Source: Modestobacter excelsi | GTDB taxonomy: Bacteria > Actinomycetota > Actinomycetes > Mycobacteriales > Geodermatophilaceae | Direction of reading: 5' to 3' | NCBI RefSeq assembly: GCF_005930495.1 | Contig: NZ_SJEX01000017.1 | Coordinates: 1-64,000 of the forward strand | Length of the DNA: 64,000 nucleotides | Part shown: piece by piece, positions 10,650 through 20,393 of the stretch | Position numbering within the stretch: position 1 is the stretch's first letter | How the letters are laid out: every line of letters begins with the position of its first letter | The notes under the pieces: generated by a model | What the model saw: the letters and a program-made list of their open reading frames with translations, nothing else | The model's database searches: none | Told to the model about the DNA's origin: nothing | Program-made: the position numbers and the translations under genes

Positions 10650-11393
10650 GTGGGCGAGACGGTGCACGACCTCATCGCGCGGATGGTGGCGCTGCTGACC
10701 TCGCTGGAGGACGACGGCGACCCGGGCCGGTTCTTCCTCGGCACCTACCTGCGGATCACCCGGGCGGTGGCGGGCGCGCTGGGCGAGGGGCTGTTCGAGG
10801 ACCCCGACTGGGTCGAGGCGTGGGACGTCGACTTCGCCGGCCTCTACCTCGACGCGCTGGAGGCCTCCCGCCGGGACCCGGCCACCGCGCCGGCGCCGTG
10901 GCGGCGGGCGTTCGCGGCCTCGCCGACGCTGCGCCCGGAGGGGCACGTGCTGCTCGGCGTCAACGCGCACATCAACTTCGACCTGCCGCAGTCGCTGGTC
11001 CGGGTCATCCCGACCGAGGAGTTCGCCGACCCGGAGGCGATGGCCCGGCGCCGGCGTGACCACGAGCGGATCGACGGCGTGCTGGCCTCCCGGGTGGCCA
11101 CCGAGGACCTCGAGCTGCAGCGGGCGGGTGACCCGCGCACCTGGCTGGACCGGCTGCTCACCCCGGTCAACCACCTCGCCACCCGGGTCTTCCTGCGGGA
11201 GTCGCGGCGCAAGGTGTGGGCCAACACCACGGTGCTGCACCAGGCGCGGCTGGCCGGCGACCGGGAGTACCGGCGCCGGCTGGCCGAGCTCGAGACGCTC
11301 AGCGACGGCCGGGTCGCCGACCTGCTCCGGCCCGGCCCGGTGCTGCTCCGCCTGGCGGTGCGCGGCTTCGGCGTCTCGCTCGCTCCCGGCTGA
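10650..11393 (+). CDS. DUF5995 family protein
   Basis: A 247-aa protein starts from GTG 10650, preceded by GAGGAGG. Conserved family stretches include 'RFFLGTYLRITRAV' near residue 30 and 'HVLLGVNAHINFDLP' near 95, with a histidine-asparagine-histidine cluster, and a helical C-terminus with 'RESRRKVWANT'. No function has been established for the family. The histidine cluster could bind a metal (inference). It stands alone between the broken PucR gene and the STAND ATPase gene. Confidence 0.75.
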   Translation: MGETVHDLIARMVALLTSLEDDGDPGRFFLGTYLRITRAVAGALGEGLFEDPDWVEAWDVDFAGLYLDALEASRRDPATAPAPWRRAFAASPTLRPEGHVLLGVNAHINFDLPQSLVRVIPTEEFADPEAMARRRRDHERIDGVLASRVATEDLELQRAGDPRTWLDRLLTPVNHLATRVFLRESRRKVWANTTVLHQARLAGDREYRRRLAELETLSDGRVADLLRPGPVLLRLAVRGFGVSLAPG

Positions 11394-11467: not shown

Positions 11468-14170
11468 GTGGACCGACCGCCGCCCGGTGCTGGGAACGGC
11501 GCGCGGTCGATCCCCACCCCGGACCAGCGCCTGCGGGTCTTCATCTCCTCGACCATGGTGGAGCTGGCCGAGGAGCGGCAGGCGGTCCGCGACGCCGTCA
11601 CCGGGCTGCGGCTGATCCCCGTGCTGTTCGAGCTCGGCGCGCGGGCGCACCCGCCGCGGGCCCTGTACCGCGCCTACCTGTCGCAGAGCGACGTCTTCGT
11701 GGGCGTCTACGGGGAGTCCTACGGCTGGGTGGCCCCCGACATGGAGGTGTCCGGCCTGGAGGACGAGTACGAGTTCTCGGCCGGCATGCCCCGGCTGGTC
11801 TACGTCCGGCGGTCGGCACCCGCGCGCGACCCCCGGCTCAGCGCGCTCATCGACCGGATGCAGGCCGCGGGCGACGTGTCCACGTCCTCCTACGACGACC
11901 CGGCGTCGCTGCGCGAGCTCGTCTCCGAGGACCTGGCCGTCCTGCTGTCGGAGCGGTTCGCCGCCCGGCGGGCCCCGCCGGGCCCCGTCCCCGGCCGGCT
12001 GCCCACCCCGGTGGCCCCCCTGGTCGACCGCACCGACGAGCGGGCGATGGTGCTGGGGCTGCTGCGCGACCCGGCCGTGCGGCTGGTGACGCTCACCGGC
12101 CCCGGCGGCACCGGCAAGACCCGGCTGGCGCTGGCCGCCGCCGAGGACCTGGTCGGCGAGCGGGACGACGTCTGGTGGGTCGACCTGGCCGCGGCGCGGG
12201 ACCCTGCAGCCGTCCCCAGCCTGGTCGCCGCCGCGATCGGGGTCCCCGCCGAGGGGCCGGTGCTGGAGCTCGTCGTCGAGCGGCTGGCCAGCCGGCGCGC
12301 GCTGCTCGTGATCGACAACGCCGAGCAGGTGCTGGCCGCCGCCCCGGACCTCTGGCACCTGCTGAGCCGCTGCGGCGGCACCCAGCTGCTGGTCACCAGC
12401 CGCAGCCTGCTGGGCCTGCGCGGGGAGCACGACGTGCCGCTCGGCCCGCTCGCCGTCCCGGGTGCGGGGGAGACGTCGCCGGACGTCGTGGCGACGGCGC
12501 CCGCCGTGCAGCTGTTCACCGCCCGCGCCCGTCGCGCCGACCCGTCGTTCACCGTGACGGCGGCCAACGCAGCGGCGGTGGCCGAGGTCGTCCGCCGGCT
12601 CGAGGGCCTGCCCCTCGCGGTGGAGCTGGCCGCCGCCCGGGTGCGGACGCTGCCGCCCGCCCTGCTGGTCCGCCGGCTGACCGCCGCACTGGACCAGGCG
12701 CTGGAGCTCCGCGACCCGGACGTGGATGCCCCGGACCGGCAGCGCACCCTCCGGACGACGATCGCCTGGAGCCACGACCTGCTCGACGACCCCGACCGGA
12801 CGCTGCTCGCCCGGCTCTCGCCGTGCACCGGCGGCTGCACGCTGGACACCGCCGAGCACATCGGCGCGGTCCACGGCGACCTCGACGTCCTGGAGAGCCT
12901 GTCGGCGCTGGTCGCGCACAGCATGCTGACCGCCACCGACACCGGGGAGGGGGAGCCGCGGTTCCGCATGTCGGCGCTGGTGCGGGCCTTCGCCGAGGAG
13001 CAGCTGCGCGAGCGGGGTGAGGAGGACCGGACCCGGCTGCGGCTGGCCGAGCACCTGGCGGCGGTGGCCCCCGCGGCGGGAGCCGGGTTGCTGGGGCCCG
13101 AGCGCGCCCGCTGGCAGGCCCGGCTGGAGGCGGAGACCGGCGACCTGCTCGCCGCCCTGGGCTGGGCGGTCGAGCACGACCGGGCCGACCTGGTCGTCCG
13201 GATCGCCGCACCGCTGGCCCGCTGGTGGTGGGCGCGCGGCCTGGTCGTCCCGCTCGCGGAGATCGCCGAGGAGACCGCCCGGCTGCCCTCCGCCGCAGCC
13301 CTCGACCCGGACGCCGGGGCGCGGCTGGCCTGGGCCTGCGGCCTGACCCGGGTGCTGCGCGGGCGGGCCGCGGGAGCGGCGGCGCTGCTGTCCAGCGTCG
13401 TCGCCGGGGCACGGGAGCGGGACGACCCCTGGCTGCTCGGGCACGGCCTGGTCGCCCTGGCCGGCACCCGCGCCCCGGACGACCCCGGGCTGCCCGGCCT
13501 GCTCGCCGAGGCGGGGACCGCCCTCCGGCGCAGCGGCGACGCCTGGTCGCTCGGCTACGCCCTGGCGTCCGCCGCCGACGCCGCAGGCGCCGTCGGCGAC
13601 CGTCCCGGCGCGGCCCGGGCCCACCGGGAGGCGCTGGAGCTGGCCCGCCGCACCGGCGACCCGCTGCTGGTCGCCGCCGTGCTGGACCGGCTCGGGATCG
13701 ACGCGGTGCTCGGCGGTGACCTCGGGGCCGCCCGGGACCGGCTGGCCGAGTCCGCGGAGCTGCACCGGCAGGTCCGCGACGCCGCGGGCCTGGCCACCTG
13801 CCTCGACGGCCTCGCCGGGCTGGTGCTGGCCCGAGGGGTGCCCCGGGCGGCGGCCCGGCTGGCCGGCGCCGCCGACGCGGCCCGGGCGGCGCTGGGCGTC
13901 GTCGGGGAGCCGCTGCTCCGCCCCTCGATCGACCGGCTGACCGCCGCCGTGCACGCCGCGCTGGACGCCGACGACGAGCCGCGGGAACGGACCGCCGGGG
14001 CGACCGCCGGCCCCTGGGCCGCGCTGGACGCCGGCCTGGCCGCGCTCGGTGCGGCCGAGGAGATCGCTGCTCGTCCCCCGTCCCGGGTCGACGGCCGTCC
14101 CGTCGCCCCGCACTCCCACCGATCGTGGAGGAGGCGACATGACCAAGCCGGCGTTGATGGCCGTCGATGA
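11468..14170 (+). CDS. STAND ATPase with N-terminal DUF4062 domain and TPR-like C-terminus
   Basis: The 900-aa protein starts at GTG 11468 behind GGGAGG. A DUF4062 domain (about 18-100, RVFISSTMVELAEERQAV) is followed by an AfsR/NB-ARC-type ATPase with P-loop 'GPGGTGKTR' near 212 and Walker B 'ALLVIDNAE' near 280, then a winged-helix-like segment and helical repeats (about 560-830). STAND proteins are ligand-triggered switches that oligomerise. DUF4062 is related to the TIR/nucleoside deoxyribosyltransferase-like fold used as a signalling or effector module. No DNA-binding domain is visible. The last 32 bases overlap the next gene. It could be a regulator or a defence-type sensor. Confidence 0.82.
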   Translation: MDRPPPGAGNGARSIPTPDQRLRVFISSTMVELAEERQAVRDAVTGLRLIPVLFELGARAHPPRALYRAYLSQSDVFVGVYGESYGWVAPDMEVSGLEDEYEFSAGMPRLVYVRRSAPARDPRLSALIDRMQAAGDVSTSSYDDPASLRELVSEDLAVLLSERFAARRAPPGPVPGRLPTPVAPLVDRTDERAMVLGLLRDPAVRLVTLTGPGGTGKTRLALAAAEDLVGERDDVWWVDLAAARDPAAVPSLVAAAIGVPAEGPVLELVVERLASRRALLVIDNAEQVLAAAPDLWHLLSRCGGTQLLVTSRSLLGLRGEHDVPLGPLAVPGAGETSPDVVATAPAVQLFTARARRADPSFTVTAANAAAVAEVVRRLEGLPLAVELAAARVRTLPPALLVRRLTAALDQALELRDPDVDAPDRQRTLRTTIAWSHDLLDDPDRTLLARLSPCTGGCTLDTAEHIGAVHGDLDVLESLSALVAHSMLTATDTGEGEPRFRMSALVRAFAEEQLRERGEEDRTRLRLAEHLAAVAPAAGAGLLGPERARWQARLEAETGDLLAALGWAVEHDRADLVVRIAAPLARWWWARGLVVPLAEIAEETARLPSAAALDPDAGARLAWACGLTRVLRGRAAGAAALLSSVVAGARERDDPWLLGHGLVALAGTRAPDDPGLPGLLAEAGTALRRSGDAWSLGYALASAADAAGAVGDRPGAARAHREALELARRTGDPLLVAAVLDRLGIDAVLGGDLGAARDRLAESAELHRQVRDAAGLATCLDGLAGLVLARGVPRAAARLAGAADAARAALGVVGEPLLRPSIDRLTAAVHAALDADDEPRERTAGATAGPWAALDAGLAALGAAEEIAARPPSRVDGRPVAPHSHRSWRRRHDQAGVDGRR

Positions 14171-15791
14171 CGACGGGCCGGTGCTGACCGCTGTGGAGCG
14201 GGACCTGCGGGCGCGGTACGCCGAGCACTACCAGGTGTACACGGCGTCCTCCGGGGAGCAGGGCCTGGACCTGCTGCGCCGGCTGCGGCTGCGCGAGGAC
14301 CCGGTGGCGCTGCTCCTGGTCGACCAGCGGATGCCCGGGATGAGCGGCGTGGAGCTGCTGGCGGCGGCGCGCAAGCTGCACCCGGAGGCCCGCCGGGTGC
14401 TGCTCACCGCCTACGCCGACACCGACGCGGCGATCAAGGCGATCAACGACGCCGACGTCCAGCACTACCTGCTCAAGCCGTGGGACCCGCCGGAGGACCG
14501 GCTCTACCCGGTGCTGGACGACCTGCTGCAGACCTGGCGGCCGCCGCCACCCGTGGCGAACCTGCGGGTGATCGGCGACCGGTGGTCGCAGGCCAGCCAC
14601 GCGGTGCGGGAGTTCCTGGCCCGGAACCTGGTCCCCTACCACTGGCTGGACGTGGAGACCGACGCGCAGGCCCGGGAGCTGCTCGACGTGGCCCAGCTCG
14701 ACGCCGGCGCGCTGCCGGTGGTCGTGCTGGACGACGGGGAGGTGCTCGTCCAGCCCGACCTGCACGAGGTGGGGGCCCGCATCGGGCTGCGGGCCCGCGC
14801 CGAGCGGCCCGGCTACGACCTGGTGGTGGTGGGCGCCGGGCCGGCCGGCCTGGCCGCCGCCGTGTACGGCGCGTCCGAGGGCCTGTCCACGCTGGTGGTC
14901 GAGTGCAGCGCTCCCGGCGGGCAGGCGGGCACCTCCAGCCGGATCGAGAACTACCTGGGCTTCCCGGTCGGCCTCTCCGGCGCGGACCTGACCATGCGCG
15001 CCCGGGAGCAGGCGATCCGGTTCGGCGCGGAGCTGCTCGTCCCCGCCGAGGTGGTCGGGGTGCGCCGGGCCGACCCCTACACGGTGGTCGCGCTGCAGGA
15101 CGGCAGCGAGGTCAGCGCCTCGACCCTGCTGGTCGCCACCGGCGTCAACTACCGCACGCTCGACGTGCCCGGGGCCGCCGGGCTCACCGGGGTCGGCGTC
15201 TACTACGGAGCGGGCCGGGCCGAGGGCGTCGACCACCAGGGCGACCGGGTGTTCGTGGTGGGCGGCGGGAACTCGGCCGGGCAGGCCGCGCTGTTCCTCT
15301 CCCAGTTCGCCGCCTCGGTGACGGTGCTGATCCGCGGCGCCGACCTGGAGTCGACCATGTCCCGGTACCTGGTCGACCGGCTGGCCGCCGAGGAGAAGAT
15401 CACCGTCGAGTACCGGACGGAGGTGGCCGGCGCGCTGGGCACCCGGCGGCTGGAGGGCCTGCGGCTCCGCTCGGGCACCGACGACCGGGAGACCCCGGCG
15501 GACGCGCTGTTCGTCTTCATCGGCCAGGCACCCCGGACCAGCTGGCTGGACGGCGTCGTCCGGCGCGACGAGCGCGGGTTCCTGCTCACCGGCACCGACC
15601 TGGGGACCGACGGCGGCATCGTCCCGCCGGACTGGCCGCTGCCCGTCCCGCCGCTGCCGCTGGAGACCTCCGTCCCGGGGGTGTTCGCGGCCGGCGACGT
15701 CCGGCACGGGTCGGGCACCCGGATCGCGTCGGCGGTGGGGGAGGGGGCGATGGCGGTCCGCTTCGCCCACCAGCGGCTGAGCTCCCGGTGA
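14139..15791 (+). CDS. Response-regulator receiver fused to thioredoxin-reductase-like flavoprotein
   Basis: The 550-aa product has three parts. A receiver domain (1-125) carries the acidic triplet DDD and phospho-acceptor Asp near 62 (LLLVDQRMPGMSG). A glutaredoxin-like linker domain spans about 130-220. The thioredoxin-reductase core has FAD motif 'VVGAGPAGLAAAVYG' near 228 and NAD(P) motif 'VVGGGNSAGQAALF' near 373. The redox CxxC of true thioredoxin reductase is absent; 'VGVYYGAGRAEG' stands there, as I remember for cNMP-linked members of this family. ATG 14139 has GGAGGAGG upstream. Its stop overlaps the kinase start, so receiver and kinase are made together. Confidence 0.88.
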   Translation: MTKPALMAVDDDGPVLTAVERDLRARYAEHYQVYTASSGEQGLDLLRRLRLREDPVALLLVDQRMPGMSGVELLAAARKLHPEARRVLLTAYADTDAAIKAINDADVQHYLLKPWDPPEDRLYPVLDDLLQTWRPPPPVANLRVIGDRWSQASHAVREFLARNLVPYHWLDVETDAQARELLDVAQLDAGALPVVVLDDGEVLVQPDLHEVGARIGLRARAERPGYDLVVVGAGPAGLAAAVYGASEGLSTLVVECSAPGGQAGTSSRIENYLGFPVGLSGADLTMRAREQAIRFGAELLVPAEVVGVRRADPYTVVALQDGSEVSASTLLVATGVNYRTLDVPGAAGLTGVGVYYGAGRAEGVDHQGDRVFVVGGGNSAGQAALFLSQFAASVTVLIRGADLESTMSRYLVDRLAAEEKITVEYRTEVAGALGTRRLEGLRLRSGTDDRETPADALFVFIGQAPRTSWLDGVVRRDERGFLLTGTDLGTDGGIVPPDWPLPVPPLPLETSVPGVFAAGDVRHGSGTRIASAVGEGAMAVRFAHQRLSSR

Positions 15792-17134
15792 CCCTGGCCC
15801 CGGACCGGGACCTCGCCACCGCGCTGCGGGGCTCCCGGTTGTTCGCGGAGCTGCCGGAGGCCGACCTCCACGTCCTGGCCGCCACCAGCCGCACCGTCGA
15901 CCTGGCGCCCGGCGAGGTGCTGATGGCCGAGGGCTCCCCACCGGAGGCGATGTACGTCGTCCTGGACGGCGAGCTGGAGGTGGCCCGGAACGTCGGTGGC
16001 TCCGACGTGCTGCTCAACGTGTGCGCCGCCGGGGACCTGCTCGGCGAGCTCGGCATCGCGCACCGCCGGCCCCGCTCCGCGACGGTCCGCGCCCGCACCC
16101 GCGCCCGGGTCCAGCGGATCGGCGCCGAGGCGCTGGACCGGCTGCTCACCCATCCGCAGTCGGCCCGGGCGCTGTTGCTGGCCGCCACCCGGCGGCTCGA
16201 CGTCGAGGAGGGGCTGGTGCGCCAGCACGAGCGGATGGCCGCGCTCGGCACGCTGTCGGCGGGCCTGCTGCACGAGCTGAACAACCCGGCGAGCGCCGTG
16301 CAGCGGGGCGCCTCCCGGCTGCGGTCGCTGCTGGCGGAGGCCACGGGCGCCGAGCAGCCGCTGCAGCGGCTGGTCGGCGCGGTACCGGCACCGGAGGACC
16401 CGCTGCTCCGCGCGGACGCCGAACGGGCGCTCACCGACGTCCTCGCCGCCGCCGGGGTGGACCGCGGCTGGGACGCCGCCGCGCGGCTGGTGCGGCTGGG
16501 CATCGACCCGGCCGCGCTGCGGACGGCGCTGGACGCCCTCCCCGCGGCCGAGCGGGGGCCGGCCGTGCACGGCACCGCCCGCGCCGGGGAGGTCGCCGCC
16601 CTCCTCGACGAGGTCTCCGCCGGCGCCGACCAGCTGTCCCGGATCGTGTCGGGGGTGCGCCCGCTGGCCTACTCCGCCGACGAGTCGATGACCGACGTCG
16701 ACGTGCACGCCAGCCTGGAGCAGGCGCTCGTGCTGCTCCGGCACAAGGTGCCCGCCGGGGTGCGACTGGTCCGTGACCTCGACCCGACCCCGCAGGTGGT
16801 CCAGGGCTGGCCCGCCGACCTGGCGCTGGTGTGGACCAATCTGCTGGACAACGCCCTGTCCGCCGTCGAGCCCGGCGGCACGGTGACGGTCCGCACCTGC
16901 GGGGAGGAGGACGCGGTGGTGGTCGACGTGGAGGACAGCGGGCCGACCGTGCCGCCGGAGGTGCTGGCCCGGGCCTTCGACGCCTTCTACACCACCAAGC
17001 CGGTCGGGGAGGGCACCGGGCTGGGGCTGGCGACCTCGCTGTCCGTGGTGGCGCAGAAGCACCACGGCCGGCTCACCCTGACCTCCGCGGACGACGTCAC
17101 CCGCGCCCGCGTCGTGCTGCCCCGGCGGCGCTGA
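15788..17134 (+). CDS. Histidine kinase with N-terminal cyclic-nucleotide-binding domain
   Basis: The 448-aa soluble protein has a cNMP-binding (Crp-like) domain at about 8-130 (GEVLMAEGSPPEAMYVVLDGE and GDLLGELGIAH). The dimerisation helix holds the phospho-acceptor His near 161 (GLLHELNNPASAV). A HATPase domain has N-box 'WTNLLDNALSAV' near 350 and 'TKPVGEGTGLGLATS' near 400. No transmembrane segment is seen, so it senses a cytoplasmic signal. The GTG overlaps the previous stop (GTGA), pairing it with the receiver-flavoprotein. The likely chain is nucleotide binding, autophosphorylation, then transfer to the receiver Asp. Confidence 0.88.
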   Translation: MTLAPDRDLATALRGSRLFAELPEADLHVLAATSRTVDLAPGEVLMAEGSPPEAMYVVLDGELEVARNVGGSDVLLNVCAAGDLLGELGIAHRRPRSATVRARTRARVQRIGAEALDRLLTHPQSARALLLAATRRLDVEEGLVRQHERMAALGTLSAGLLHELNNPASAVQRGASRLRSLLAEATGAEQPLQRLVGAVPAPEDPLLRADAERALTDVLAAAGVDRGWDAAARLVRLGIDPAALRTALDALPAAERGPAVHGTARAGEVAALLDEVSAGADQLSRIVSGVRPLAYSADESMTDVDVHASLEQALVLLRHKVPAGVRLVRDLDPTPQVVQGWPADLALVWTNLLDNALSAVEPGGTVTVRTCGEEDAVVVDVEDSGPTVPPEVLARAFDAFYTTKPVGEGTGLGLATSLSVVAQKHHGRLTLTSADDVTRARVVLPRRR

Positions 17135-17135
17135 G

Positions 17136-20100
17136 TCACGGGTCCAGCAGGGCGTCGGCGGCCGCCGCCCAGTCGCTGACGAAGGACGCCGGCATGTCCG
17201 CGCGCGCCTCCGCCAGGACCGTGCGCCAGTCGTCGGGCCGGGCCGGCGGCGGGATCGCCGCGAGCTCCAGCGCCGCGCGCAGCCGGCTCACCCGGTTGCC
17301 CTGCTCGATCGACACCCGGACGGCCTCCCGCAGGTCGGCCACCGCCTCCTCGGCCGCCGCCCCCCGGGCCAGCGCGTAGACCGCCCGCAGCCGCAGCAGC
17401 CCGGGCAGGTGCAGGTGCTCGGCCGCCTCCCGCACCGCGGCCAAGCCGTCGGAGATGTGCCCGGCGGCGCTGTCGAGGTCCCCGGCGGCCGCGTCCAGGC
17501 GGGCGAGGTAGATCAGGTGGGAGGCGGCGAAGGACTCGTGCCCCATGAGCCGCAGCGTGCCGACGGTCTGCTCCACGAACGCGCGGTCCGGCTCGTCCCC
17601 GGGCTCGGGGGCGGCCAGGTACACCGCGCCGAGCGCCGTCCAGAAGGCGTAGCCGTGCTCCCGGCCGAGGGCGAGTACCTCGGCGCCGAGCCGCCGTGTG
17701 CCCTCGTCGTTGCCGAGGAAGCGGCGGATCCAGGCGGCGTAGACCTGGACGAACGCCAGGCTCGACGGGCCGAGCGGCGGTCCGATCTCCCCGGCCCGGC
17801 GAAGCGCCTGCGCCTCCCACCGCGCCGCGTCGTCGAGCTCGCCCCGCGTTGCACTCACGCACGCCAGCGCGATGGCCGCCCCCGCCACCGGGTCGTTGGG
17901 CAGCGGCCACACCCGGGAGACCACCGCCTCCGGCGGCCGGGCGGCGAAGCCGGCCAGCGCACGCTCCAGGTGCACCGGGGCCGACAGGAGCCGGCCCTGG
18001 TGCAGGTCGGTGAACCCGGCGCACGTCGCCACCTCCGGCTCGAACCCGGCGAAGGCAGGCTGGCGCACCATGCCGGTGAGCCGGTCGACCAGTTCGCGGG
18101 CCGTGGTGAGGCCGCCGCTGGTGAAGCGGTAGGCCCACAGCGCGATCAGCGCGGGCAGCACCTCCGGTCGCCCCAGCCGGACGGCGAGCTCCTCGGCGCG
18201 CCGGTGGTCGGACTGCACCATCGGAGCGGCGTAGCCGTGCATCGAGCTGACGCTCAGCCCCCGCAGCAGCCGGGCGGTGAGCTCGCTGAGGTCGCGGTCC
18301 TCCGACGCCGGGAGGGTCTCCAGCAGCTCCAGAGCCCGGGTGAGCAGCTCGGTGGCCTCGGTGTGCGCCCCGCGGGCGTGCTGGGCCTGGGCGGAGACCA
18401 GGTAGAGCGCGGCGGCGCGAGCAGCGGCGCCGGCCAGGTCCAGGTGCTGGGCGATCAGGGCCGGCTCGGCGCCGGCCCCGGTGAGGGCGTCGGCCACCCG
18501 GGCGTGCGTCTCGCGGCGCACGTCGAGCACCTGGGTCTCGTAGGCGGCATCGCGCATCAGGGCGTGCCGGAAGCGGTAGCTGGCCACCGCCGGGCCGGCC
18601 GGTTCGACGATCCCCTGCTCGGCCAGCAGCCCGAGCTGCTCGGCGACGGCGGCGGGGTCGCCGACCACCGCCGAGACCGTCGCGGCGTCGAAGGTCGGCC
18701 CCACGGTGGCGGCGACCTGGACCACGCGGAGGTCGATGCCCGGCGCCTTGAGCCGCCAGGTGAACAGCTCCTGCAACCGGAGCGGCATCGGGTCGGAGCG
18801 GTGCTCGTCGAGGCTGGACCGGGTCAGCTCCTCCAGGAACAGCGGGATGCCCTCGGCGTGCGCGATGATCGAGGCCCGCTGGTCCGCGCCGAGTCCCCGC
18901 CCGGCTGTGAGGTTCTCCACCAGCCGCGTGGCGGCGGACCCGTCCAGCCTCCGCAGCTGCAGGACCTCGGCGGCGTCCCGCCAGGGCACCACCGCGTCTT
19001 CCCGGCTGGTCGCGACCAGCAGGACGCCGGGCAGCTGCCGGCCGACCAGCCGCCCCAGCAGCTCCAGGGTGGAGGGGTCGGCCCAGTGCAGGTCCTCGAC
19101 GGCGACCAGGTACGGCGGCCGGGCGGTCCGGGCGGCGACCCAGTCGGCGAGCCGGTCGAGGGTCTCGTCGAGCAGCGCGGTGGGGTCCAGCGCGGGCGCC
19201 GGGTGCTCGGGCGTCGGCGGGATCCCCAGGAGGGGGCCGAGGAAGGGCACCGACCCGGCCGGGTCCACCCCCAGCTGGTCGAGGTGGGCGAGTAGGGCGG
19301 GCAGCCGCTCGGCGTCGTCGGACACCGCGCCGACCTCGCGCTCCAGCATCTGCGCGATCGGCCAGAGCGAGACGTTCGCGTGGTAGGGCAGGCACGCCGC
19401 GCCGAGCACCCGGCCCCCGCTGGCCTCCACCCGGTCGAGCACCTCCGCCACCAGCCGGGACTTGCCGATGCCCGCCTCGCCGACGATCAGGAAGGTGGCG
19501 GCCGACGACGGCCCGGTCGTCCGCCGCACCACGCCCCACGCCGAGAGCAGCCGGTCCCGCGGGGCGTCCCGCCCGACCAGGCCGGCCTGCCGGTAGCGCT
19601 CGGCCTCGAACCGGGCCGCGGCGTACCGGGGCCGCTCCACGGCGAAGACCTCGACCGGCCGGCTGATCCCCTTGAGGTGCCGCTCGCCCAGGGAGTGCAG
19701 GACGAAGTCGGCGTCGACCAGCTGCTGGGTGACGTCGCTGATCACCACCATGCCCGGGTCGGCCGCCTGCTGGACGCGGGCGGCCAGGTTGGGGACCAGC
19801 CCGACGATCGAGTCCCGCTCGGCGACGCCGTCGTCCCCGCTCAGGTCGGTGACCACCACCCGGCCGGTGTGGAGGCCCACCCGCAGCTCGGGGGCCACCC
19901 CGAAGCGGCGGTCCAGCTCGGGCCGGGCGTCCCGCATGGTCACCAGCAGGTCGAGCGCGGCCAGCACCGCCCGGCGGGCGTCGTCCTCGTGGGTGGTGGG
20001 GTGCCCGAACCCGGCGAGGATGCCGTCGCCGGAGTACTGCATGACGTAGCCGCTGTACCGGTCGACGGCCTCCCGGGCCGCCGTCCGGTAGAAGCCGAAC

Positions 20101-20393
20101 AGGTCGCGGAGCTGCTCGGGCTCCACCCGCTCGGACAGCATCGTGGAGCCGACCAGGTCGGAGAACAGCAGGGTCATCAGCACCCGCTCGCCGGACGGTC
20201 CCAGCTGGCGGGCCGACACCCGGCGCAGCACCGAGGCCGCGCGCGGGTTGTCCGGGTCGACGGCGCGGACCTCCTCGGCGGTGGACCGGGCGAGCTCCAG
20301 CTCCCCGGCCGCGAGGAGGGTCTCCGCCGACCGGAGCAGCCGGTCCAGCAGGCGCTCCAGCCGCGCCTCCGCCGAGAGCGCGAGGTCGGTCAC
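17136..20393 (-). CDS. Class III nucleotide cyclase fused to AAA-type ATPase and TPR repeats
   Basis: The 1085-aa protein has an N-terminal helical stretch, then a class III adenylate/guanylate cyclase domain (about 75-245). Metal-binding Asp residues are in 'LLFSDLVGSTML' and 'YSGDGILAGFG'; the latter matches the family closely. An ATPase with 'VGEAGIGKSRLVAEV' follows near 305, with 'VAVEDLHWADPSTLELL' as Walker B. A long alpha-helical repeat region completes it, without a LuxR helix-turn-helix. It converges on the kinase gene with one base between stops. A GTG at 20393 is preferred because the open frame upstream lacks coding bias. Confidence 0.88.
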   Translation of the reverse strand: MTDLALSAEARLERLLDRLLRSAETLLAAGELELARSTAEEVRAVDPDNPRAASVLRRVSARQLGPSGERVLMTLLFSDLVGSTMLSERVEPEQLRDLFGFYRTAAREAVDRYSGYVMQYSGDGILAGFGHPTTHEDDARRAVLAALDLLVTMRDARPELDRRFGVAPELRVGLHTGRVVVTDLSGDDGVAERDSIVGLVPNLAARVQQAADPGMVVISDVTQQLVDADFVLHSLGERHLKGISRPVEVFAVERPRYAAARFEAERYRQAGLVGRDAPRDRLLSAWGVVRRTTGPSSAATFLIVGEAGIGKSRLVAEVLDRVEASGGRVLGAACLPYHANVSLWPIAQMLEREVGAVSDDAERLPALLAHLDQLGVDPAGSVPFLGPLLGIPPTPEHPAPALDPTALLDETLDRLADWVAARTARPPYLVAVEDLHWADPSTLELLGRLVGRQLPGVLLVATSREDAVVPWRDAAEVLQLRRLDGSAATRLVENLTAGRGLGADQRASIIAHAEGIPLFLEELTRSSLDEHRSDPMPLRLQELFTWRLKAPGIDLRVVQVAATVGPTFDAATVSAVVGDPAAVAEQLGLLAEQGIVEPAGPAVASYRFRHALMRDAAYETQVLDVRRETHARVADALTGAGAEPALIAQHLDLAGAAARAAALYLVSAQAQHARGAHTEATELLTRALELLETLPASEDRDLSELTARLLRGLSVSSMHGYAAPMVQSDHRRAEELAVRLGRPEVLPALIALWAYRFTSGGLTTARELVDRLTGMVRQPAFAGFEPEVATCAGFTDLHQGRLLSAPVHLERALAGFAARPPEAVVSRVWPLPNDPVAGAAIALACVSATRGELDDAARWEAQALRRAGEIGPPLGPSSLAFVQVYAAWIRRFLGNDEGTRRLGAEVLALGREHGYAFWTALGAVYLAAPEPGDEPDRAFVEQTVGTLRLMGHESFAASHLIYLARLDAAAGDLDSAAGHISDGLAAVREAAEHLHLPGLLRLRAVYALARGAAAEEAVADLREAVRVSIEQGNRVSRLRAALELAAIPPPARPDDWRTVLAEARADMPASFVSDWAAAADALLDP

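What the first reader, a model, noticed from the sequence alone, without database searches (positions are those of the whole stretch)
11468..20393. Possible cNMP-to-redox phosphorelay: STAND ATPase, receiver-flavoprotein, cNMP-binding kinase and nucleotide cyclase side by side
Seen: genes 11468-14170, 14139-15791 and 15788-17134 overlap in order, and the cyclase gene (17136-20393) ends one base away on the other strand. Modules are DUF4062-STAND; receiver plus thioredoxin-reductase-like flavoprotein; cNMP-binding histidine kinase; class III cyclase-ATPase-TPR. Known: class III cyclases make cAMP or cGMP, and cNMP-binding domains sense them. Inference: the cyclase supplies a signal read by the kinase, which phosphorylates a receiver that controls a flavoenzyme directly rather than DNA. 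I do not know of this four-part set being described.
Basis: partly seen in the sequence, partly recalled or inferred. Interest (0 to 1): 0.8.

Follow-up and report, generated by a model that had tools for sequence, protein, structure and literature searches.

The report
Cyclic-nucleotide kinase wired to flavoenzyme
A soil bacterium's neighbouring genes look like a chain in which a small cyclic-nucleotide messenger is made, sensed by a kinase and passed on to switch a redox enzyme directly, and related genomes mostly keep a messenger-making gene beside the pair even where it is of a different kind.

Summary
Comparison supports the inferred chain cyclase -> cNMP-binding kinase -> receiver-flavoprotein, with corrections. 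(1) The kinase/flavoprotein pair is common in Actinomycetes, but outside the window's clade every cNMP domain read has lost its phosphate-binding cassette (33 of 33; 29 of 29). (2) Among 112 Geodermatophilaceae genomes 15 carry the window-type kinase; 15 of 15 keep the cassette; 14 have a class III cyclase domain within 10 kb (0.27 expected), against 0 of 34 other pairs. The cyclases are of four architectures, implying about three or four separate associations. (3) The receiver phospho-site is intact in 40 of 40 flavoproteins with the kinase adjacent, in 0 of 24 without. (4) The flavoprotein lacks the thioredoxin-reductase CxxC. (5) The STAND gene is present in only 3 of 15 loci, though its close relatives sit beside other flavoproteins of this family. 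(6) A CBS-domain gene lies near the kinase in the 9 loci without the window's cyclase type. No biochemistry was possible; cAMP versus cGMP is open.

The parts
11468..14170 (+). DUF4062-STAND ATPase protein (900 aa), probable accessory
   Evidence: Pfam; in the set only in window, L009, L107; 11 relatives at 62-68% lie divergently beside other flavoprotein genes of this family
14139..15791 (+). Receiver - glutaredoxin-like - TrxR-like flavoprotein (550 aa)
14151..14492 (+). receiver domain (residues 5-118), phospho-acceptor D62
   Evidence: Pfam; intact D-D/D/T/K
14559..14783 (+). glutaredoxin-like domain without cysteine (residues about 141-215)
   Evidence: weak, below Pfam cut-off
14811..15773 (+). 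TrxR-like FAD/NAD(P) module (residues 225-545)
15198..15236 (+). place of the TrxR CxxC, here VYYGAGRAEGVDH (residues 354-366)
15788..17134 (+). cNMP-binding histidine kinase (448 aa)
16031..16102 (+). intact phosphate-binding cassette of the cNMP domain (residues 82-105)
   Evidence: GEL...PRSA in 15 of 15 window-type kinases; 0 of 33 and 0 of 29 others
16271..16273 (+). phospho-accepting His162 (inferred; H-box HELNNP)
   Evidence: invariant in the 30 rows
17136..20393 (-). class III nucleotide cyclase - AAA ATPase protein (1085 aa), convergent
   Evidence: orthologue in the same place in 6 of 15 loci
19644..20177 (-). cyclase catalytic domain; Q and S at the usual K/D substrate-specificity positions

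Best explanation
A cyclic-nucleotide-gated two-component system whose output is an enzyme, not a promoter. The class III cyclase makes a 3',5'-cyclic nucleotide (inferred; cAMP is a guess, cGMP open). The cNMP domain of the kinase binds it through its intact cassette (inferred from residues), changing autophosphorylation on H162 (inferred). The phosphoryl group goes to D62 of the receiver fused to a glutaredoxin-like/TrxR-like flavoprotein encoded by the overlapping gene (inferred from the residue/adjacency concordance). Receiver phosphorylation then changes the NAD(P)H-dependent activity or partner binding of the flavoprotein, which lacks the CxxC needed for normal thioredoxin-reductase chemistry (loss shown; effect inferred). 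The AAA part of the window's cyclase, and in other loci membrane or hydrolase parts and a CBS-pair protein, would feed different inputs into the same output (inferred). The STAND protein is an optional partner of this flavoprotein family.
For: Pair: 38 of 63 flavoprotein hits in 57 family genomes have the kinase next downstream on the same strand; 29 of 29 class-wide kinase loci read have the flavoprotein upstream. Receiver site intact in 40 of 40 with the kinase, 0 of 24 without. Cassette intact in 15 of 15 window-type kinases, 0 of 33 and 0 of 29 elsewhere. Class III cyclase domain within 10 kb (in fact 7 kb) of 14 of 15 window-type kinases, 0.27 expected; 0 of 34 other pairs. Four architectures: orthologue of the window's in 6 loci, another cyclase-AAA-TPR in 3, a cyclase with 6-7 hydrophobic segments in 5, an alpha/beta-hydrolase-cyclase in 3 that also have another.
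Against: No biochemistry. The 15 loci are one clade, so independent cyclase associations number about three or four; the five membrane-cyclase loci share wider surroundings. In 11 of 15 the cyclase is convergent, so not co-transcribed. The window's cyclase has Q/S at the specificity positions; of two copies in G. africanus one has the transition-state Asn changed, and the hydrolase-cyclases lack it and match Pfam only weakly (22-27 bits); the second cyclase of L017 looks interrupted. Locus G468 shows no cyclase on its contig (10 kb, cut upstream). A Crp-like protein with an intact cassette elsewhere in the genome could be the real cNMP target. A CBS gene is associated in 9 of 15, so cyclases are not the only recurring neighbour.
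Confidence: 0.6

Rival explanations
1. The kinase and receiver-flavoprotein form a real two-component pair, but the cNMP domain is structural or senses another ligand, and the neighbouring cyclases signal to a Crp-like regulator elsewhere; cyclase adjacency is inherited synteny.
For: The other pairs read lack an intact cassette and, in the family, a near cyclase; a Crp-like protein with an intact cassette exists at G000:C132; 11 of 15 cyclases are convergent; the loci are one clade.
Against: Four cyclase architectures on either side and strand within one clade, with the cassette kept there; cyclase domains are scarce (60 in 15 genomes).
Confidence: 0.25
2. A Pycsar-like anti-phage system: the cyclase answers infection and the cNMP-domain protein is the effector.
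For: PADLOC PycC models match the window's cyclase (best 47 bits) and more strongly those of L019 (69 bits) and L018 (81 bits); the kinase's cNMP domain matches PycTIR and other effector models (37-40 bits). STAND ATPases occur in defence systems (recalled).
Against: The cNMP protein carries a histidine kinase, not a TM or TIR effector; PycC models score shared class III cyclase sequence; no PADLOC match for STAND or flavoprotein; kinase and flavoprotein go together widely without an intact cNMP site.
Confidence: 0.06
3. Unlinked signalling genes that happen to be neighbours.
For: The full four-gene order is found in only 3 of 15 window-type loci.
Against: for three of the four genes.
Confidence: 0.05

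Closest known systems
REC-thioredoxin-reductase response regulators ('Mycobacterium-like combination', PMC5847659, passages seen)
   Same: receiver fused to a TrxR-like module
   Different: the passages seen only name the architecture; nothing on a cNMP kinase, a cyclase or a missing CxxC was in them
cNMP-domain-TrxR fusion enzymes, e.g. ATII-TrxR (PMC6544261, passages seen)
   Same: about 550 aa, regulatory N-terminal domain (13-146), a stretch of about 87 residues, then TrxR-like module (234-522)
   Different: there the cNMP domain sits on the flavoenzyme itself and DTNB/thioredoxin reduction is reported; here the cNMP domain sits on a kinase and the flavoenzyme bears a receiver
AhpF (4o5q, 1hyu), top Foldseek rows for the model
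   Same: thioredoxin-fold domains before a TrxR-like core (AhpF architecture recalled)
   Different: no receiver in AhpF; its CxxC pairs (recalled) absent here; the model is poor (mean pLDDT 61, TM 0.27) so this is weak
Pycsar (PADLOC PycC/PycTIR models)
   Same: class III-like cyclase beside a cNMP-domain protein
   Different: kinase instead of toxic effector; a kinase/flavoprotein pair that is kept without cyclases elsewhere

Membership tests
Two-component system | kinase with H-box, N and G boxes | tested here: met
Two-component system | receiver with D-D, D, T/S, K | tested here: met
Two-component system | phosphotransfer between the two | not testable with these tools
   needs in vitro assay
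Low-Mr thioredoxin reductase | FAD and NAD(P) Rossmann motifs | tested here: met
   GAGPAG, GGGNSA, AGDV
Low-Mr thioredoxin reductase | redox-active CxxC | tested here: not met
   VYYGAGRAEGVDH where 2q7v and 5uth have CATCDG; no CxxC at residues 345-375 in 64 aligned rows (L076 is out of frame in that stretch)
cNMP-binding (CRP/PKA-R type) domain | phosphate-binding cassette G-E...R-S/T-A (rule recalled) | tested here: met
   15 of 15 window-type kinases
cNMP-binding (CRP/PKA-R type) domain | binds cAMP or cGMP | not testable with these tools
   needs binding assay
Class III nucleotide cyclase | two metal Asp, transition-state Asn/Arg (rule recalled) | tested here: met
   FSDLVGST, SGDG, PNLAAR
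Class III adenylate cyclase | Lys and Asp/Thr substrate-specifying residues (rule recalled) | tested here: not met
   Q and S in the window; H or Q at the Lys place in its orthologues
Pycsar defence | cyclase plus TM or TIR effector with cNMP domain | tested here: not met
   cNMP domain is on a histidine kinase; PADLOC: PycC models match the cyclases, no TIR or TM part found
cNMP-domain-TrxR fusion | cNMP domain in the same chain as the TrxR module | tested here: not met
   receiver there instead

The most novel reading that the evidence does not exclude
A three-tier cascade in which a second messenger gates a histidine kinase and the phosphoryl group acts allosterically on a TrxR-derived flavoenzyme without a catalytic dithiol, with the upstream cyclase exchanged among soluble AAA/TPR, membrane and hydrolase-fused types while the core stays fixed: a 'plug-in input' cNMP-to-redox relay that bypasses transcription.
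Probability: 0.5. Interest if true: 0.78.

Novelty: new variant of a known kind. Interest (0 to 1): 0.63.

Why it matters
If true it joins two bacterial signalling currencies (cyclic nucleotides and phosphotransfer) in one short path that ends at a redox flavoenzyme rather than at DNA. The natural contrast (cassette kept where a cyclase is near, lost where none is; receiver kept with the kinase, lost without) makes each step testable with point mutants, and points to a large Actinomycete kinase/flavoprotein family for which my searches showed no described substrate.

Tried and rejected
Chance neighbours: rejected for kinase + flavoprotein + cyclase. Four-gene set as a conserved unit: rejected, STAND in 3 of 15. 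Gene fusion of flavoprotein and kinase in G460 (L112, one 995-aa frame): rejected, the flavoprotein's C-terminus continues in another frame and the cyclase there is also out of frame in part, so probably assembly errors. 'No cyclase elsewhere': a search with the whole cyclase protein found only 2 other genomes of 57, and in G038 not beside the pair; a domain search reversed this. Kinase model: mean pLDDT 60.6, not used. Flavoprotein model: mean pLDDT 61, only local secondary structure used. Papers: ten searches listed no paper on a cNMP-binding kinase with a REC-TrxR partner; this covers only the open PMC library, and for only the 12-15 best rows of 34-857. Passages of the Deinococcus paper PMC8945050 held nothing on this.

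Rows dropped or limited: of 43 STAND hits the first 20 (40% or more identical, starting within the first 14 residues) went into; the other 23 were not checked for linkage. One search used the 64 flavoprotein rows of 500 aa or more out of 69 rows (5 fragments from L014 and L075 left out); L013 is a metagenome-assembled record; of the 25 kinase-less hits, two (G050, G030:C6) were not read. Of the 24 non-intact receivers, three (L031, L060, L061) keep D62 and K113 but have lost D11 and T90. Of the 34 other pairs the cassette was read in 33 (not G005), and several lie near contig ends, so a cyclase there could be unseen. Of 65 class-wide kinase matches the 29 non-window loci that the tool fetched were read. 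In-54 locus L009 stands for genome G490, taken to be the same organism from identical kinase identity; L114, L115, L116 are the same contigs, by length, as L010, L011, L012. The binomial p treats related loci as independent and is not to be taken at face value; genome size there is rounded. One search used crude gene calls and printed 16 clusters.
Full report
WHAT IS THERE. The window is part of contig C80 of a 5.26-Mb genome; the nearest named relative found is Modestobacter altitudinis (L009, flavoprotein 97% identical). The flavoprotein also has a glutaredoxin-like domain between receiver and TrxR-like core: Pfam Glutaredoxin at 19.2 bits, below its 22.9 cut-off, and a matching local fold in an otherwise poor model. 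The TrxR CxxC is absent: VYYGAGRAEGVDH stands where the solved reductases 2q7v and 5uth have CATCDG, and none of 64 aligned relatives has CxxC at residues 345-375.

THE PAIR IS REAL AND WIDESPREAD. In 57 family genomes the flavoprotein has 63 hits at E <= 1e-40; 38 have a P0003-like kinase next downstream on the same strand (gaps of -7 to 100 nt for all but three, G030, G005 and G010, where the matches are partial), 25 have none within 5 kb. In 394 genomes of the class, 61 have a kinase match at E <= 1e-55; of the 29 non-window loci fetched, 29 have a flavoprotein match upstream on the same strand. Receiver residues read in 64 aligned flavoproteins: D-D/D/T/K intact in 40 of 40 with the kinase adjacent, not intact in 24 of 24 without it; 21 of those 24 have lost D62, and three keep D62 and K113 but have lost D11 and T90. 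That is what phosphotransfer from this kinase would predict.

ONLY THE WINDOW'S CLADE KEEPS THE cNMP SITE. The cassette pattern is present in 8 of 8 window-type kinases and in 0 of 33 others of the family, and in 0 of 29 others of the class. All 112 held Geodermatophilaceae genomes were searched; 15 have the window-type kinase (E <= 1e-100, 63-100% identical). All 15 keep GEL...PRSA, and the 14 flavoproteins that could be read beside them have intact receiver residues.

AND THERE A CYCLASE IS NEXT DOOR. Class III cyclase domains (E <= 0.001) number 103 in the 57 genomes and 60 in the 15. Of the 15 window-type kinases, 14 have one within 10 kb, the farthest at 6.8 kb; 0.27 loci would be expected from density. 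The fifteenth (G468) begins 57 bases from a contig end and has none on the remaining 10 kb. Of the 34 other pairs, 0 have one within 10 kb, the nearest seen at 45 kb, though several lie near contig ends. The cyclases differ. A: orthologues of the window's, convergent (window, L009, L107, L108, L114 with two copies, L115). B: another cyclase-AAA-TPR protein (L116 downstream, L018 and L017 upstream; interrupted in L017). C: a cyclase with 6-7 hydrophobic segments, convergent (L019, L110, L111, L112, L113). D: alpha/beta-hydrolase-cyclase (L017 downstream, L110 and L111 upstream). In the kinase tree type C forms one supported clade (99/100) while A and B are not resolved, so there were probably three or four associations, not fourteen. 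The five type-C loci also share other neighbours. Families shared between loci of different surroundings in that crude comparison were the flavoprotein and kinase, cyclases, a CBS gene and an aldo/keto reductase (L018 and three type-C loci; Pfam), the last being a large general family; antisense frames made one spurious cluster.

A FIFTH PLAYER. The CBS gene encodes a two-CBS protein. A homologue lies within 1.4 kb of the kinase in 9 of 15 loci, that is each locus that is not type A: next to the kinase in eight, beyond the hydrolase-cyclase in L017. None was found in the 6 type-A loci. CBS pairs often bind adenosine nucleotides (recalled), which suggests an energy input; this is inference. In the window the AAA part of the cyclase may fill that role.

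THE STAND GENE. Only window, L009 and L107 have it here (3 of 15). Yet of the 20 STAND hits analysed, the 12 at 62% or more lie beside a flavoprotein gene of this family: 11 divergently, from a class whose receiver residues are lost (L066 has no Response_reg match), plus the window; none of the 8 at 40-44% do. So STAND proteins of this subfamily go with this flavoprotein family, and in Modestobacter one sits next to the kinase-linked version.

WHAT THE ENZYME MAY DO. The kinase-linked flavoproteins outside the clade have one Cys at the place of residue 366 (32 of 32 rows, one of them, L076, out of frame there), where the 8 window-type rows read all have His; the TrxR-like part of these 8 has one Cys and the glutaredoxin-like part none. 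Classical disulfide reduction is therefore unlikely; an NAD(P)H-dependent electron transfer to a partner, quinone, oxygen or metal is my guess. In the window's cyclase the residues that set ATP versus GTP in class III enzymes (rule recalled) are Q and S, so the product is not predictable.

COMPARISON WITH PRINT. REC-TrxR proteins are named in PMC5847659 (passages). A cNMP-TrxR fusion enzyme with reported thioredoxin and DTNB reduction is in PMC6544261 (passages): there the cNMP domain is on the enzyme, here it is one phosphotransfer away. Ten searches of the open library (named under Tried and rejected, four of them with capped lists) showed no description of the combination. PADLOC's PycC models match the cyclases (47 bits for the window's, up to 81 for L018), so a Pycsar-like role was weighed; the kinase in place of an effector speaks against it.

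VERDICT. The inferred path is well supported by comparative evidence for three of the four genes, unproven biochemically, and needs correcting on the enzyme (not a thioredoxin reductase by its active site) and on the STAND gene as a fixed part.

Noticed in passing
L018:6470-6916 and homologues in L017, L019, L109-L113, L116: Gene for a two-CBS-domain protein near the kinase in 9 of 15 window-type loci, not found in the 6 with the window's cyclase type.
   Followed up: partly
L121:1-2085 (G000:C122): Na+/H+ antiporter fused to a DsbA-like and a cNMP-binding domain, followed by a stretch that by eye resembles the flavoprotein's glutaredoxin-like domain.
   Followed up: partly
L066-L072, L074, L032, L035, L036: DUF4062-STAND gene divergent from a flavoprotein gene whose receiver has lost its phospho-site, 0.2-1.2 kb apart; in 11 genomes.
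   Followed up: partly
L114:2237-9096: Geodermatophilus africanus (same contig as L010, by length) has two tandem orthologues of the window's cyclase; one has the transition-state Asn changed.
   Followed up: no
L112 (G460): Flavoprotein gene is out of frame near its 3' end and the neighbouring cyclase is out of frame in part, probably assembly errors.
   Followed up: partly
L017:13670-17204: The upstream cyclase-AAA-TPR gene of G053 appears interrupted: matches fall in three successive pieces.
   Followed up: no
window 10650-11393 +: DUF5995 protein (PF19458, 187 bits) directly upstream of the STAND gene.
   Followed up: no
G000:C145:25575-28639 and G000:C163:6318-7961: The same genome has a second kinase/flavoprotein pair with a cassette-less cNMP domain, and a flavoprotein with a non-intact receiver and no such kinase nearby.
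   Followed up: yes
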